DNA of 64,000 nt from assembly GCF_006716125.1 (NCBI RefSeq), contig NZ_VFOM01000001.1, positions 1,674,001 to 1,738,000 of the forward strand, in the 5' to 3' direction. The notes beneath the pieces were generated by a model that made no database searches, was not told the origin of the DNA, and was given only the letters and a program-made list of their open reading frames with translations. The translations under genes and the position numbers were made by a program. The stretch comes from Homoserinimonas aerilata. Its GTDB lineage: Bacteria > Actinomycetota > Actinomycetes > Actinomycetales > Microbacteriaceae. How positions within the stretch are numbered: position 1 is the first letter of the stretch; each line of letters opens with the position of its first letter. This document shows, piece by piece, positions 23,955 to 60,575 of the stretch.

Positions 23955-23980
23955 GCGCTGAGCCTTGGGTACCCAGCCCC

Positions 23981-24285
23981 CGCGAGAGTACGCAAATTGC
24001 ACGATTCCGGCGCGAAAACGTGCAATACGTGCAGTCTCGGCGAAGAGGGCGGCCAATCCCGTGGGAGGTGCGAGGTCGAGGGCTGCGGATGCTCCGCGAG
24101 AGTACGCAAATCGCACGGTTCTGGCACAAAAGCGTGCAATACGTGCAGTCTCGGCGAAGAGGGGCGGAACCGGCCCCGTGGGAGGTGCGAGGTCGAGGGC
24201 TGCGGATGCTCCGCGAGAGTACGCAAATCGTACGGTTCTGGCACAAAAGCGTGCGATTCGTGCAGTCTCGGCGAAGAGGGCGGGG
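23981..24285. repeat. Three tandem copies of a ~115-bp unit, each with a ~57-bp imperfect palindrome
   Basis: The 424-base stretch 23955-24378 has no gene. It holds three copies starting at 23981, 24095 and 24212 (spacing 114 and 117). Each begins CGCGAGAGTACGCAAAT and contains two 21-base arms facing each other: 23983-24003/24019-24039, 24097-24117/24133-24153, 24214-24234/24250-24270. The arms pair imperfectly (about 15 of 21), closing on a loop near 15 bases. Linkers between copies share GGGAGGTGCGAGGTCGAGG and GCTGCGGATGCTC. The third copy lacks the linker. Weak open frames across it on both strands are repeats of the same unit and not genes. Confidence 0.85.
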
Positions 24286-55271: not shown

Positions 55272-56312
55272 CTACAGTCGGCGGGTGGCGTCCTGCACTT
55301 CGCCGACCAGCTCCTCGATGATGTCCTCAAGGAACAGCACGCCGCGCGTGGCGCCCGACTCCTCGAACACCCGCGCGATGTGCACACCTGAGCGGCGCAT
55401 CGCAGCGAGGGCATCCTCGAGTTCCATGTCGCGGTAGATGGAGATGAGCTGGCGGATGCGCTTCGGCGGCACAGGCTCCAGGAACTCACCCGTGTCGTCG
55501 AGGTCGATGACATCCTTCAGATGCAGGTAGCCGGTCGGCTCACCCTCATCGTCGACGAGCACATAGCGAGAGAAGCCGTGCTGGGCTACGGCGCGCTCCA
55601 CATCGGCCGGCGTGGCCGCCTCCGAGAGGCTCACCAGATCGCCCATACCCACCTCGATGTCACGCACCTTCTTCTGCGTGAACTCGAAGGCGTTGCTGAG
55701 CGCTCCCGTGCGGTCGGTGAGCACACCCTCGCGCGTGGAATGTGCGACGATGTTGGCGACCTCGTCGACCGTGTACGAGCTGGTCGCCTCACTCTTCGGC
55801 TGAACGCGGAAGAGCAGCAGAACCCCGTTCGCCGTGGCGTTCAGCGCCCAGATCACGTGACGGAACACGCGCGAGACCCACACGAGCGGCGGAGCCAACA
55901 GCAGAGCCATGCGATCGGGCAGCGAGAACGACAGGTTCTTCGGAACCATCTCGCCGAACACCACATGCAGGAAGGAGACCAGCACGAGCGTCACGATGAA
56001 CGCGAGAGTGCCGATGACCTCCTCCGACCAGCCGGTCAGCTGCAGCGGAAGCTCCAACAGGTGGTGGATGGCCGGCTCTGAGACGTTCAGGATGAGAAGC
56101 GAGCACACCGTGATGCCCAGCTGGCTCGTCGCCAACATGAGCGTCGCATGCTCCATCGCGTAGAGCGTCGTCTTCGCGGCGCGCGAACCCGCCTCCGCCT
56201 TCGGCTCGATCTGCGATCGCCGCGCGGAGATCACCGCGAACTCGGCACCGACGAAGAAGGCATTGGCAAGCAGAAGGATGAACAGCCAGGCGATACCCCA
56301 CCAATCGGTCAT
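55272..56312 (-). CDS. CNNM/HlyC-like membrane protein with CBS pair (short form)
   Basis: 346 residues: DUF21/CNNM transmembrane domain (VGAEFAVISARRSQIE near residue 20; GEMVPKNLSFSLPDR), then two CBS repeats (residues ~205-335). It ends after the CBS pair, without the CorC_HlyC domain present in its neighbour. CNNM proteins act in magnesium or cobalt export. ATGA overlap with the gene upstream indicates co-translation and possibly a heteromer. Confidence 0.88.
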   Translation of the reverse strand: MTDWWGIAWLFILLLANAFFVGAEFAVISARRSQIEPKAEAGSRAAKTTLYAMEHATLMLATSQLGITVCSLLILNVSEPAIHHLLELPLQLTGWSEEVIGTLAFIVTLVLVSFLHVVFGEMVPKNLSFSLPDRMALLLAPPLVWVSRVFRHVIWALNATANGVLLLFRVQPKSEATSSYTVDEVANIVAHSTREGVLTDRTGALSNAFEFTQKKVRDIEVGMGDLVSLSEAATPADVERAVAQHGFSRYVLVDDEGEPTGYLHLKDVIDLDDTGEFLEPVPPKRIRQLISIYRDMELEDALAAMRRSGVHIARVFEESGATRGVLFLEDIIEELVGEVQDATRRL

Positions 56313-57634
56313 CGTCGCTCAACCCCTTCACTCGCCGGCGCATCCGGGTCGGGGGTGAAACGCACGCGGTCGATGCGGCGGCCGTCCATGCGCTCGACCC
56401 TGAACTCGCCGGCGTCGACACGCACGGTGTCGCCCACCACGGCCAGACGGCCCAGCTCGCTCATGATGAAGCCGGCGACCGTCTCGTAGGGTCCGTCCTC
56501 CGACACCACGACATCCGCCCGCTCCAGAAGCTCATCGGGGCGCAGCATGCCGGGGAACGTCAACCAGCCGCGCGAACGCACGACGCCCGCACGGGCACGA
56601 TCGTGCTCGTCGGCGACCTCACCGACAAGCTCCTCCACCAGATCCTCCAGCGTGGCGACCCCGGCCGTTCCGCCGTACTCGTCGACGACGATCGCCATCT
56701 GATAGCCGCGCTGCCGCAGCTCACCCAGCAGGGAGTCGAGCTTCATGGTCTCAGGAACCCGCAGAGCCGAACCCTGCAGTGCCGAAGCCGGAACATCCGC
56801 CCGCTTCTCGCGCGGAACCGCGACCGCCTGCTTCACGTGCACGACACCGACGACGTCATCGATGCTGTCGTCGATGACCGGAAAACGCGACAGGCCCGTG
56901 CTCTTGGCCAACTCGATGACCACCTGGGCCGAATCGGTGCGGTCCACGCTCGCCACGCGGGGTCGCGGCGTCATGACGTCGGCGGCGACATGCTCGCTGA
57001 ACACGAGCGTGCGCGAGAGCAGCGTGGCCGTGTCGACCTCGAGCGTGCCCTCCTTCGCCGAACGACGCACAAGCGACCGCAACTCCTCGGCGGTTCGCGC
57101 CGACGACAGCTCCTCCTTCGGCTCGATGCCGACAGAGCGCAGGATGACGTTGGCCGTGTTGTTCAGCAGCACCACAGCGGGCCGGAACGTCCAGGTGAAC
57201 GCGGTCTGGAACGGCACCACAAGCTTGGCCGTCGCGATCGGCAGGGCGAGCGCGAAGTTCTTGGGCACCAGCTCGCCGATGATCATCGAGAGCAGCGTGG
57301 CGACGCTCACCGCGATGACGGCCGCGATCCCGCGCGTCACCTCCGAAGGGAACGGGAGCGTGCTGAGCGGGCCAGCGAGCATGCCGCTGAACGCCGGCTC
57401 GAGCGTGTACCCGGTCAGCAGCGTCGTCAGCGTGATGCCCAGCTGCGCACTCGACAGGTGCGTCGAGGTGTGCCTGAGCGCCGCGATGGTCATGCCGAGC
57501 CGCGTCTCGCCACGCGCCTGGCGCGCTTCGAGCTCGGAGCGTTCGAGATTGACGAGAGAGAACTCGGATGCGACGAAGAGGCCGGTTCCGATGGTGAGCA
57601 CCAGGCCGATGCCCAGCAGAGTCAACTCGTGCAT
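56309..57634 (-). CDS. CNNM/HlyC-like membrane protein with CBS pair and CorC_HlyC domain
   Basis: 441 residues from the ATG at 57634 (an upstream TTG at 57652 is possible). CNNM domain with VASEFSLVNLERSELEARQ and GELVPKNFALALP; CBS pair with VMTPRPRVASVDR and VDEYGGTAGVATLEDLVEELVGEV; C-terminal CorC_HlyC domain (PYETVAGFIMSELGRL). Likely a Mg2+ transporter or its regulator. A TATACT -10 lies 47 bases upstream. Confidence 0.9.
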   Translation of the reverse strand: MHELTLLGIGLVLTIGTGLFVASEFSLVNLERSELEARQARGETRLGMTIAALRHTSTHLSSAQLGITLTTLLTGYTLEPAFSGMLAGPLSTLPFPSEVTRGIAAVIAVSVATLLSMIIGELVPKNFALALPIATAKLVVPFQTAFTWTFRPAVVLLNNTANVILRSVGIEPKEELSSARTAEELRSLVRRSAKEGTLEVDTATLLSRTLVFSEHVAADVMTPRPRVASVDRTDSAQVVIELAKSTGLSRFPVIDDSIDDVVGVVHVKQAVAVPREKRADVPASALQGSALRVPETMKLDSLLGELRQRGYQMAIVVDEYGGTAGVATLEDLVEELVGEVADEHDRARAGVVRSRGWLTFPGMLRPDELLERADVVVSEDGPYETVAGFIMSELGRLAVVGDTVRVDAGEFRVERMDGRRIDRVRFTPDPDAPASEGVERR

Positions 57635-57680
57635 GGTGAACCGGCAGGGCAACTAGAGGGAGGGTCGTCCATTTGCTCTG

Positions 57681-57686: not shown

Positions 57687-57819
57687 ACCGTCGCAGGCGA
57701 CAGGGCGGCTGTGAGCCCTCGCTGTGCTCGCCCGGGCTCGCTCCTCCACCCCGGGCTCATTCCTCCTCGCCCGCCCTCACCTGTGCTCACCGCTCCGCGC
57801 CACGGGGACTCCGCCAGCG

Positions 57820-57890
57820 CTTCACCCGACACGTCGCGACACATCCGCCCCCTCCACGGGTACAGCCGTGTCGCGAAGTGTCGGGTGAAG
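57820..57890. repeat. ~70-bp palindromic element, copy 1
   Basis: Arms 57820-57842 and 57868-57890 pair over 23 bases with one mismatch; the 25-base loop starts ATCCGCCCCCTCCAC. It stands in the 378-base gene-free gap 57635-58012, between the divergent CNNM operon and the AbiEi/DUF559-like gene. Near-identical to copy 2 at 59051-59121, same orientation. The remainder of the gap shows only the CNNM -10 and GC-rich sequence without structure. Confidence 0.9.
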
Positions 57891-58000
57891 GGCTGCGGGC
57901 ACCACTTTCAGGCGCGGCGCACGGCTCCTCAACAGGCTTCGTTCCGGCGACGGATGCCACGGGTCGCCGGCGCGCGCTCCCTTGGTCGCCCGCCGCGCAC

Positions 58001-58006
58001 GACACT
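58001..58006 (+). promoter_or_regulatory. -10-like GACACT of AbiEi/DUF559-like gene
   Basis: GACACT differs from TANNNT only in the first base and ends 6 bases before the ATG at 58013; there is no Shine-Dalgarno sequence. Confidence 0.3.
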
Positions 58007-58012
58007 CGAGTG

Positions 58013-59017
58013 ATGCACACACATTCCCACTCGCGCGGCGGCATCCTCCTGACGAGCGAGATCCTGCGCCTCGGTGAACAGCCCAGGCAGGTGCAACGGC
58101 TGCAGCGGGCCGGGAGCCTGCAGCGACTGAGGCGCGGAGTCTTCGTGGATGCCGAGAAGTGGGTCGGTGCCACACCGCGGTCGAAATACCTGCTGCGGCT
58201 GCGCGCCGTCGCGGCAACCCGCATCCGCGAACCCGTCTTCAGCCACGCCTCGGCAGCCGCCATTCATGGCCTCCCATTGCTCCACAGACAGATGCTCGCA
58301 GCCCACATCAGCTCGGATCCGGTCGGGCGGTCACGTAACGGCGTGATCCGGCACAGATCTCTGCCCGGGCGCACTGCCGAGCTCATCGACGGCCTCTGGT
58401 GCACCTCGCTCGCCGACACGCTGGCGGACCTCGCGCTCACATCCGATCTCGCCGCCTTCGTCGTGCCCGCCGACCATGCCCTGCACCGTGTCGCGCGTGA
58501 CGCGCTGCTCCCAGGCGAGTGGGCCGTCGTGGAGTCAACGGCTGCGGGTGATGCCGCACGCGCGTTCTCCGAGCGCGTACGGGAGTCGATCCTCGCAACG
58601 GGTCGAACGCGCGGCCTTCATCAGGCGCTCCGTTCCCTCGCGTTCGCGACGCATCTCGCCGACTCCCCCGGCGAATCGGTCAGCCGGTGCACCATCCACC
58701 TGCTCGGGTTCCCTGCGCCGGAACTGCAGCATCCGTTCCATGACGAGGACGGCTTCATCGGCTGGAGCGACTTCTGGTGGCCCGGGCAGCAGGTCGCGGG
58801 CGAGTCCGACGGAGAGGGGAAGTATCTTGACCCAGCGATCCTCCAGGGTCGCACGACGGAGCGGGCTCTGGTCGATGAGAAGTGGCGGGAGGATCGCATC
58901 CGCAACACCGGCGCCAGGGTCGTCCGCTGGGATTGGGCGACCGCCCGCGACCCGAAGAAGCTCCACGCCAGGCTGTTCGCCGCCGGGCTGCGGTTGGAGA
59001 GCCGCGGGCGCGCCTGA
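58013..59017 (+). CDS. AbiEi-like/DUF559-like PD-(D/E)XK protein
   Basis: 334 residues from the ATG at 58013 (a GTG immediately before it is in frame). N-terminal ~90 residues resemble the AbiEi-type winged-helix antitoxin domain (LLTSEILRLGEQPRQVQRLQRAGSLQRLRRGVFV and a SHASAAAIHGLPLL segment). The C-terminal ~90 residues have a Vsr/DUF559-like nuclease pattern: D in IGWSDFWWP, then GESDGEGKY, then EKWREDRIRNTGARVVRWDW. So it could be a DNA-binding nuclease-like protein. No AbiEii-like toxin gene follows. The gene is bracketed by two copies of a 70-bp palindrome. Confidence 0.8.
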   Translation: MHTHSHSRGGILLTSEILRLGEQPRQVQRLQRAGSLQRLRRGVFVDAEKWVGATPRSKYLLRLRAVAATRIREPVFSHASAAAIHGLPLLHRQMLAAHISSDPVGRSRNGVIRHRSLPGRTAELIDGLWCTSLADTLADLALTSDLAAFVVPADHALHRVARDALLPGEWAVVESTAAGDAARAFSERVRESILATGRTRGLHQALRSLAFATHLADSPGESVSRCTIHLLGFPAPELQHPFHDEDGFIGWSDFWWPGQQVAGESDGEGKYLDPAILQGRTTERALVDEKWREDRIRNTGARVVRWDWATARDPKKLHARLFAAGLRLESRGRA

Positions 59018-59050
59018 CACCACTCAGCCGCTGCAGTCGGCTCGATCCCC

Positions 59051-59121
59051 GCTCACCCGACACTTCGCGACACATCCGCCCCCTCCACAGGTACAGACGT
59101 GTCGCGAAGTGTCGGGTGAGA
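59051..59121. repeat. ~70-bp palindromic element, copy 2
   Basis: Arms 59052-59073 and 59099-59120 are a perfect 22-bp inverted repeat (core CCGACACTTCGCGACAC) with a 25-base loop matching that of copy 1 in 23 of 25 bases. It lies 34 bases past the AbiEi/DUF559-like stop codon, in the gap to the convergent guaB1. It may also serve as a two-way terminator. Confidence 0.9.
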
Positions 59122-59135
59122 GCGGCGAGACCGCG

Positions 59136-60575
59136 CTACCAGCTGACCGGCAGCGCCTTTCCCTCTTCGTAGCCTGCGGCCGACTGGATGCCGACGAGCG
59201 CGCGCTCGTGGAAGTCCGCGAGCGACGTCGCCCCCGCATAGGTGAAGGAGCTGCGCACACCCGAGGTGATCATGTCGAGCAGGTCCTCCACCGAGGGGCG
59301 CAGCGGGTCGAGGTAGATCTTCGAACTCGAGATGCCCTCCGCGAAGAGCTCCTTGCGTGCCAGCTCGTACGGGTCGAGCCTGCCGAAACGCTCATGCACG
59401 GCCTTGGTGGACGCCATGCCCCAGCTCTCCTTGTAGAGCCGGCCGGCGTCATCCGCCTGCAACGTTCCCGGCGCCTCGACGGTGCCGGCGAACCAGGAGC
59501 CGATCATCACAGCCGATGCGCCGGCCGCGAGGGCGAGCGCGACATCACGCGGGTACCGCACGCCGCCGTCAGCCCACACGTGCGCGCCCAGCTCGGCCGC
59601 AGCATCCGCCGTCTCGAGCACGGCCGAGAACTGGGGCCTCCCCACCGCGGTCATCATGCGGGTCGTGCACATCGCGCCGGGTCCGACACCGACCTTGAGG
59701 ATGTTCGCCCCCGCCGAGACGAGGTCGCGCACGGCCTGCGCCGTCACGACATTGCCCGCGACGATCGGCAGCCCGAGGTCGAGCGAGGCCACCGACTCGA
59801 CCGCCCGCAGCATGCCCTCCTGGTGCCCGTGGGCCGTGTCGACGACGAGCAGGTCGACGCCCGCCTCGGCGAGTGCCCGCGCCTTCGTCGCGATGTCACC
59901 GTTGATGCCGAGCGCTGCGGCCACCCGCAGGCGACCGGATGCGTCGACGGCCGGCTCGTAGAGGGTGCTGCGCAGGGCGCTGCGGCGGCTGAGCGTTCCG
60001 ACGAGCCTGCCGTGGTGCAGCACGGGCGCGAAGTCGAGATCGGCGGCGACCATCAGGTCGAAGGCGGCGCGTGCATCCGTCACATCGTCTGCGTCGATGG
60101 AGGTGAGTTCGCCGTGCAGCAGATCTCCGAGGCGCGCGTCGGGGATCGCCGTCGCCAGTCGGGCTGCGGGCAGGCAGCCCAGGTATTCGCCCGCACCGTC
60201 GCGCAGCACGATTCCCTGACCTGCGACGGCGGGAACGAGTTGGAGCGCGTCGGCGACCGTCTGCTCGGCCGAGAAGTCGAGCGGGGTGTCGAAGGAGACC
60301 GACTGATCCTTCACCCAACGGATGGCGGCGTCGAGCTCCTGCAGCGGCAGATCCTGGGGAAGCACACCGAGGCCGCCACGCCGGGCCAGGGTGGCGGCGA
60401 GCCGCGGGCCCGTCACCGAGTTCATGTTCGCCGAGACGATGGGGATGGTGGCCCCCGATCCGTCGGTCGCCGCAAGCGAGACGTCGAGCCTGCTGCGGAT
60501 GCCCGAACGACTGGGCAGCAGGAAGACATCCGAATAGGTCAGGTCATGGCTCGGTGTCGCCTCGTAGAACTTCAT
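59136..60575 (-). CDS. guaB1: GuaB1-type IMPDH-like protein (probable GMP reductase)
   Basis: 479 residues: (beta/alpha)8 barrel of the IMPDH/GMPR family with a CBS pair inserted at ~residues 95-215. Catalytic Cys is in VGPGAMCTTRMM (about residue 302), substrate-loop GVRYPRDVALALAAGASAVMIG. The actinobacterial GuaB1 group is distinct from IMP dehydrogenase GuaB2 and has been shown in mycobacteria to be a CBS-regulated GMP reductase, returning GMP to IMP. TAGCCT ends 6 bases before the ATG. Whether this one is active is not shown by sequence alone. Confidence 0.88.
   Translation of the reverse strand: MKFYEATPSHDLTYSDVFLLPSRSGIRSRLDVSLAATDGSGATIPIVSANMNSVTGPRLAATLARRGGLGVLPQDLPLQELDAAIRWVKDQSVSFDTPLDFSAEQTVADALQLVPAVAGQGIVLRDGAGEYLGCLPAARLATAIPDARLGDLLHGELTSIDADDVTDARAAFDLMVAADLDFAPVLHHGRLVGTLSRRSALRSTLYEPAVDASGRLRVAAALGINGDIATKARALAEAGVDLLVVDTAHGHQEGMLRAVESVASLDLGLPIVAGNVVTAQAVRDLVSAGANILKVGVGPGAMCTTRMMTAVGRPQFSAVLETADAAAELGAHVWADGGVRYPRDVALALAAGASAVMIGSWFAGTVEAPGTLQADDAGRLYKESWGMASTKAVHERFGRLDPYELARKELFAEGISSSKIYLDPLRPSVEDLLDMITSGVRSSFTYAGATSLADFHERALVGIQSAAGYEEGKALPVSW

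What the first reader, a model, noticed from the sequence alone, without database searches (positions are those of the whole stretch)
57820..59121. AbiEi/DUF559-like gene bracketed by two near-identical 70-bp palindromes
The two palindromes (22-23-bp arms, 25-base loop, same orientation, about 65 of 70 bases identical) stand 122 bases before and 34 bases after a single gene with an AbiEi-like DNA-binding domain and a Vsr-like nuclease pattern. Bacterial REP palindromes often flank the nuclease that mobilises them (RAYT type). Here the enclosed protein would be of a different family, so the unit may be a new palindrome-nuclease module: mobile, defensive, or both. The loop and arm are conserved together, which a plain terminator would not need.
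Basis: partly seen in the sequence, partly recalled or inferred. Interest (0 to 1): 0.75.

Follow-up and report, generated by a model that had tools for sequence, protein, structure and literature searches.

The report
Nuclease gene bracketed by matching palindromes
A bacterial gene for an unusual, probably DNA-cutting protein sits between two matching hairpin sequences that are also scattered through the genome, and related genes in many related bacteria sit between matching repeats of their own, which points to an undescribed kind of enzyme-and-repeat unit, perhaps mobile.

Summary
The two 67-nt palindromes (96% identical) belong to a family of 13 dispersed copies in this 2.84-Mb genome; a DNA search of 58 relatives, 4 of them congeners, found none. 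The enclosed protein models confidently as an AbiEi-antitoxin fold joined to a Vsr/EDxHD-endonuclease-like fold. At this site 4 of 4 congeners lack both gene and palindromes. Homologous genes in other genomes of the family carry their own bracketing repeats of different sequence: 68 of 89 loci have matching repeats on both sides, against 0 of 197 genes from arbitrary stretches and 0 of 125 neighbouring genes. Most brackets are palindromic (62 of 71, own genome included), about 70 bp long, and many share one build: a motif repeated exactly 19 bp apart. Brackets are gene-specific: 3 of 4 such genes in this genome have different ones, and one of these occupies 36 places. Best reading: a REP/RAYT-like module that uses a Vsr-fold nuclease instead of an HUH transposase. 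The gene-palindrome link is statistical but strong. Binding, cutting and copying are inferred; no fresh insertion was seen. Ten searches of an open-access library listed no description.

The parts
57822..57888 (+). Upstream palindrome (67-nt core; ungapped pairing extends to 57815-57895)
59053..59119 (+). Downstream palindrome, 96% identical to the first, same orientation
58013..59017 (+). Gene for a 334-aa AbiEi-fold plus Vsr-fold protein (stop codon included; start inferred)
58013..58651 (+). [not shown]
58658..59002 (+). Part coding residues 216-330, Vsr / I-Bth0305I-like nuclease fold with invariant E221, D253, E264, D266, K270
57700..59135 (.). Approximate stretch (gene and both palindromes) absent in 4 of 4 congeners, in which the two neighbouring genes lie close together

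Best explanation
This is a two-part genetic module: a gene for a nuclease-like protein with an AbiEi-type DNA-binding part and a Vsr/EDxHD-type domain, and a cognate palindrome of about 65-70 bp that brackets the gene and is scattered as non-coding copies between other genes. Such genes in one genome have different palindromes. SHOWN by sequence: bracketing, dispersal, gene-specificity, a common build (often a motif repeated at 19 bp in the arms), an empty site in congeners, and unusually fast divergence of the gene at fixed sites. INFERRED: the protein binds the palindrome as a dimer or higher form, its Vsr-fold domain nicks or cuts there (perhaps at a cruciform or at single-stranded hairpins during replication), and repair or strand transfer copies the palindrome into other intergenic sites and keeps the copies alike. 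It would thus work like a REP/RAYT 'REPtron' but with an unrelated nuclease.
Against: No recent palindrome insertion was found: 39 pairs of syntenic loci gave two insertions of 45-140 bp, neither palindromic at my threshold. All 21 pairs of bracketed proteins at least 70% identical share an element, but all 21 are syntenic, so that sharing may be plain common descent; four more pairs above 70% contain an unbracketed partner. 21 of 89 loci are not bracketed at the threshold (three of the eight among the first 29 are cut short by contig ends), and two distant AbiEi-like genes met by chance in sampled stretches score 34 and 23. One genome of the other genus (G365) has 6 palindrome places; none of the 4 whose loci were fetched has such a gene nearby. 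No target-site duplication seen at the gltA site (by eye). In the window's own element the 19-bp repeat is weak (6 of 8). Foldseek alone gives the nuclease match only E 0.26. Binding and cutting are untested.
Confidence: 0.6

Rival explanations
1. Autoregulation: the palindromes are operators. The AbiEi-type domain represses its own promoter from the upstream copy, and the dispersed copies form a regulon or are by-products.
For: AbiEi antitoxins bind 23-bp inverted repeats in their promoters (PMC7319586, passages). The upstream palindrome lies 124 bp before the inferred start codon.
Against: A matching second bracket lies downstream of the gene in 68 of 89 loci. By my reading of the predicted frames 10 of 13 copies of the window's family lie within about 120 bp of a gene's 3' end, mostly beside unrelated housekeeping genes. 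A nuclease-like domain with invariant acidic residues is not needed for repression.
Confidence: 0.2
2. Conflict or homing allele at fixed sites: the nuclease spreads or defends its own locus by cutting rival alleles or invading DNA; the palindromes are its address tags or protected ends.
For: The same chromosomal site holds different alleles: the window's gene is syntenic with genes 37-41% identical in four other genomes, with unrelated palindromes. Over 120 syntenic pairs (not independent of one another) median identity is 48% for this protein and 83% for its neighbours, lower in 116 of 120. I-Bth0305I is a homing enzyme that dimerises on a target of nearly 60 bp (PMC3943268, passages).
Against: Does not by itself explain 13 copies or 36 places. 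The gene stands between genes, not inside a target gene.
Confidence: 0.15
3. Ordinary REPs or MITEs moved by some other transposase (RAYT or an insertion sequence); the AbiEi-like genes are passengers caught between two copies.
For: Dispersed intergenic palindromes in genome-specific families are typical of REPs (PMC3733652, passages). I did not search this genome for a RAYT.
Against: One protein family is bracketed in 68 of 89 cases, mostly with different palindromes, while 0 of 322 other genes are. A passenger would not be the same family everywhere.
Confidence: 0.05
4. Plain transcription terminators at gene ends.
For: Palindrome 2 lies between convergent genes, and 6 of 13 copies sit between convergent genes (and my reading of the strands).
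Against: No run of T follows either palindrome. The terminator scan found none, but it only looks for loops of 3-8 bases and could not have seen these. Palindrome 1 lies between divergent genes. Arm and part of the loop sequence are conserved among 13 copies, and the arm is never found alone.
Confidence: 0.02

Closest known systems
REP palindromes with RAYT / TnpA-REP transposases (REPtrons, REPINs)
   Same: Small intergenic palindromes in genome-specific families; a cognate nuclease gene bracketed by copies.
   Different: The bracketed protein has a Vsr-like fold with an AbiEi domain, not an HUH fold; brackets are about 70 bp, without a GTAG or CGTC tag in the window's family, often with a motif repeated at 19 bp.
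AbiE type IV toxin-antitoxin systems (AbiEi antitoxin)
   Different: Carries an added nuclease-like domain; no partner toxin gene beside it; palindromes also downstream and dispersed.
EDxHD homing endonuclease I-Bth0305I and Vsr endonuclease
   Different: Not in an intron and not inside a target gene; linked to dispersed palindromes.
MITEs
   Same: Short dispersed non-coding elements with inverted repeats.
   Different: No target duplication seen; the gene lies between complete copies rather than between terminal repeats.

Membership tests
REP / RAYT (REPtron) | Palindromes dispersed in intergenic DNA in many copies | tested here: met
   13 copies; 36 places for a second family
REP / RAYT (REPtron) | Cognate nuclease gene bracketed by the palindromes | tested here: met
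   68 of 89 homologues v 0 of 197 and 0 of 125 controls
REP / RAYT (REPtron) | The bracketed gene encodes an HUH (Y1) tyrosine transposase | tested here: not met
   No Y1 family hit; the model matches AbiEi and Vsr/I-Bth0305I folds. The rest of the genome was not searched for a RAYT
REP / RAYT (REPtron) | GTAG or CGTC tag at the foot of the palindrome | tested here: not met
   No such tag at the foot in the 13 copies of the window's family (read by eye); not checked in the other families
AbiE type IV toxin-antitoxin | AbiEi-type antitoxin fold | tested here: met
   [not shown]
AbiE type IV toxin-antitoxin | Operon with an AbiEii nucleotidyltransferase toxin | tested here: not met
   The gene stands alone; the adjacent long frames lie on the other strand; for the window's gene only
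EDxHD / Vsr nuclease superfamily | Catalytic-domain fold | tested here: met
   [not shown]
EDxHD / Vsr nuclease superfamily | Active-site residues and cutting activity | tested here: inconclusive
   Invariant E221, D253, E264, D266, K270 in 93 sequences; not superposed on the known active site; activity not testable here
MITE / insertion sequence | Target-site duplication at filled sites | tested here: inconclusive
   None seen by eye at the gltA site against congeners, but the relatives are too distant for base-exact comparison

The most novel reading that the evidence does not exclude
AbiEi-Vsr proteins of this actinobacterial family (by inference Microbacteriaceae) form a new class of palindrome-mobilising systems. 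Each protein reads a private palindrome of about 70 bp built from motifs 19 bp apart, sits at recurrent chromosomal sites where alleles are replaced or diverge very fast, and seeds its palindrome through the genome by nuclease-driven copying: the counterpart of RAYT/REP with an unrelated enzyme.
Probability: 0.5. Interest if true: 0.92.

Novelty: categorically new. Interest (0 to 1): 0.86.

Why it matters
For one REP class no dedicated enzyme is known (CGTC REPs, PMC3733652, passages), and as far as I recall HUH transposases are the only established partner of such bacterial palindromes. A second, unrelated enzyme class paired with private palindromes would show that the REP strategy evolved more than once, would give a likely role to a large family now named only as an 'antitoxin domain' or hypothetical protein (221 of 398 genomes of the family have a homologue), and would offer many ready-made protein-target pairs to learn how such proteins read DNA.

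Tried and rejected
Terminator reading: no T-run after either palindrome; the scan found none but cannot see loops longer than 8. RNA family: six loci searched, one weak irrelevant hit, not at a palindrome. RNA structure: 2 of 20 pairs compensated, covariation term +0.53, right arm more conserved than left, so an RNA role is not favoured. Phage origin: 0 matches of the arm pattern in viral contigs. Same arm core elsewhere: 3 loci in Intrasporangium and Actinomyces, with no such protein in those stretches. Covariance model in 397 other genomes of the family: 7 with weak matches, to other palindromes. Palindromes at the gltA and purB sites of G003 and at the purB site of G001 did not match the two of three AbiEi-like genes fetched for each. 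Same-genome sampled stretches: 0 of 22 hits at 40 or more, against 4 of 1338 for other genomes; a further 400 kb each of two genomes gave 1 dispersed copy each for 2 of 4 elements, none in the other genome. Insertions in flanks of 39 syntenic pairs: two, not palindromic at my threshold. PDB by sequence: nothing for the protein, one irrelevant hit for the profile. NCBIfam: one irrelevant weak hit.

Full report
OBSERVATION. The window holds two same-oriented palindromes, 57822-57888 and 59053-59119, 96% identical over 67 nt, with 25-nt loops, on either side of one gene, 58013-59017 (+), with 124 and 35 bases between. The upstream neighbour (56309-57652, minus) and the downstream neighbour (59136-60575, minus) look by eye like a CNNM/CorC-type gene and an IMP dehydrogenase; I ran no family search on them. 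That the family is Microbacteriaceae is my inference from genome sizes and from names, not a tool result.

THE ELEMENT. A DNA search of the window's own genome (G000, 2.84 Mb, 6 contigs) finds 13 distinct canonical copies on four contigs, and none at E 1e-3 in the 58 other genomes searched, 4 of them congeners. A covariance model adds two diverged copies; in 397 other genomes of the family it finds weak matches in 7, to other palindromes. All 19 exact and 6 one-mismatch hits of the 14-mer arm lie in the 13 copies, and the two arms start 41 bases apart in every copy. The right arm is more conserved than the left, and parts of the loop are conserved. Covariation does not favour an RNA role. Other copies lie beside ordinary genes (ribosomal L17, citrate synthase, adenylosuccinate lyase, RecG, RNase PH and others); I ran 20 of the 22 flanking frames of the 11 other copies against Pfam, and three had no family. 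Frames were chosen by a codon-composition rule, not by a gene finder.

EMPTY SITES. At the window's site all 4 congeners have the two neighbouring genes close together, with neither the gene nor the palindromes. Two further sites of the family, beside purB and gltA, lack the element in 4 of 4 congeners each. Some congeners carry other palindromes at those places; for the sites tested in G003 and G001 these did not match the AbiEi-like genes I had fetched.

THE PATTERN IS GENERAL. Of 398 genomes of the family, own included, 221 have a homologue at E 1e-20 or better. I examined the 29 non-self loci returned and 60 further listed hits, picked by hand roughly in order of score; six of the 60 are from congeners. 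The upstream and downstream flanks share a repeat (score 40 or more) in 21 of 29 and 47 of 60; controls give 0 of 197 (highest 34) and, for neighbouring genes in the 60 loci, 0 of 125 (highest 34). By ungapped palindrome detection alone, 15 of 29 have one within 300 bp and 7 of 29 on both sides, against 18 and 0 of 197. Direct and inverted arrangements are equal, 34 and 34. With the three bracketed genes of this genome there are 71 bracketed loci: repeat median 70 bp, 117 bp before and 93 bp after the matched part of the gene; at least one copy palindromic in 62. Two more distant AbiEi-like genes that happened to lie in sampled stretches were not bracketed (34 and 23), nor was the fourth gene of this genome (30).

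ONE BUILD, MANY SEQUENCES. In 63 elements, self-match peaks at a lag of 19 bp (0.459 against 0.283, z 21.8; two weaker peaks at 37 and 33). In 49 non-redundant ones, 31 have at least 7 of 8 matches at lag 19, against 1-2 at lags 17, 18, 20 and 21 and 16 of 980 shuffles; 12 of 53 other palindromes met in sampled stretches show it too, against 0-2 at those other lags. The window's own element shows it weakly (6 of 8).

BRACKETS ARE GENE-SPECIFIC. In this genome 3 of 4 such genes are bracketed, each by a different family. The family of the gene at C1:293729 occupies 36 places (my count from the 45 matches), 8 of them round that gene, and none in the 4 congeners. Same-genome pairs of bracketed genes, this genome's three included, never share an element: 0 of 17. 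Element sharing by protein identity: 21 of 21 pairs at 70% or more, 3 of 13 at 60-70, 5 of 50 at 50-60, 1 of 2401 below 50. The 21 are all syntenic, so descent alone could explain them, and four further pairs above 70% have an unbracketed partner; but three pairs at 57-61% identity (two independent cases) share an element at unrelated sites. In a second genus, the palindrome of one gene has 11, 10, 11 and 4 places in four genomes with the gene and 6, 1 and 0 in three others; of four genomes of other genera, G000 has 1 match and three have none (my counts; presence of the gene judged from the loci fetched and the E-values). Sampling 400 kb each of G115 and G003 found one dispersed copy each for 2 of 4 elements and none in the other genome; 22 earlier same-genome stretches of 20 kb gave none.

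FAST EVOLUTION AT FIXED SITES. In 120 pairs with both flanks matching (many share a locus), this protein's median identity is 48% and that of its neighbours 83%, lower in 116 of 120. The window's site is itself occupied in four other genomes by genes 37-41% identical with unrelated palindromes.

MECHANISM. The most economical reading is a REPtron-like module with a different enzyme. Shown: association, specificity, dispersal, empty site, predicted fold. Inferred: binding through the AbiEi part, cutting by the Vsr-like domain, and copying by repair or strand transfer. I-Bth0305I dimerises on a target of nearly 60 bp (PMC3943268, passages), and two AbiEi-type proteins bind their own but not each other's inverted repeats (PMC7319586, passages); both fit a dimer on a palindrome of about 70 bp. 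No insertion event was caught.

PRIOR WORK. Ten searches listed no title or abstract that links DUF559, AbiEi or Vsr-like proteins to dispersed palindromes; 'DUF559' with 'inverted repeats' and with 'AbiEi' gave no paper. Most of the other searches matched hundreds to thousands of papers, of which 10-25 were listed. Seen beyond listings: passages of PMC3733652, PMC7319586 and PMC3943268; outline and abstract of PMC8266576. The library is open-access only, so absence is not proof.

Noticed in passing
window 23980-24045, 24087-24159, 24204-24276 (minus): Three copies of another palindrome family, which brackets an AbiEi-like gene elsewhere in the genome (G000:C1:293729-294469) and occupies 36 places in all (my count).
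   Followed up: partly
L278-L317 (sampled stretches of G115 and G003): Several further palindrome families with more than one copy and no known cognate gene; 16 and 19 palindromes in 400 kb each, about one per 20-25 kb.
   Followed up: partly
L091, L092, L093: Palindromes with the same 12-base arm core in Intrasporangium calvum and Actinomyces bowdenii; no AbiEi-Vsr protein in those stretches.
   Followed up: partly
L073, L080-L085 (G113): At least six copies of a palindrome family with GCGACA units spaced about 10 and 9 bases.
   Followed up: no
L096, L098, L102, L103: Congeners carry unrelated palindromes beside purB or gltA where this genome has its own, so some gene ends look like repeated landing sites.
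   Followed up: partly
L024:777-860: GC-rich tandem repeat near the second AbiEi-like gene.
   Followed up: no
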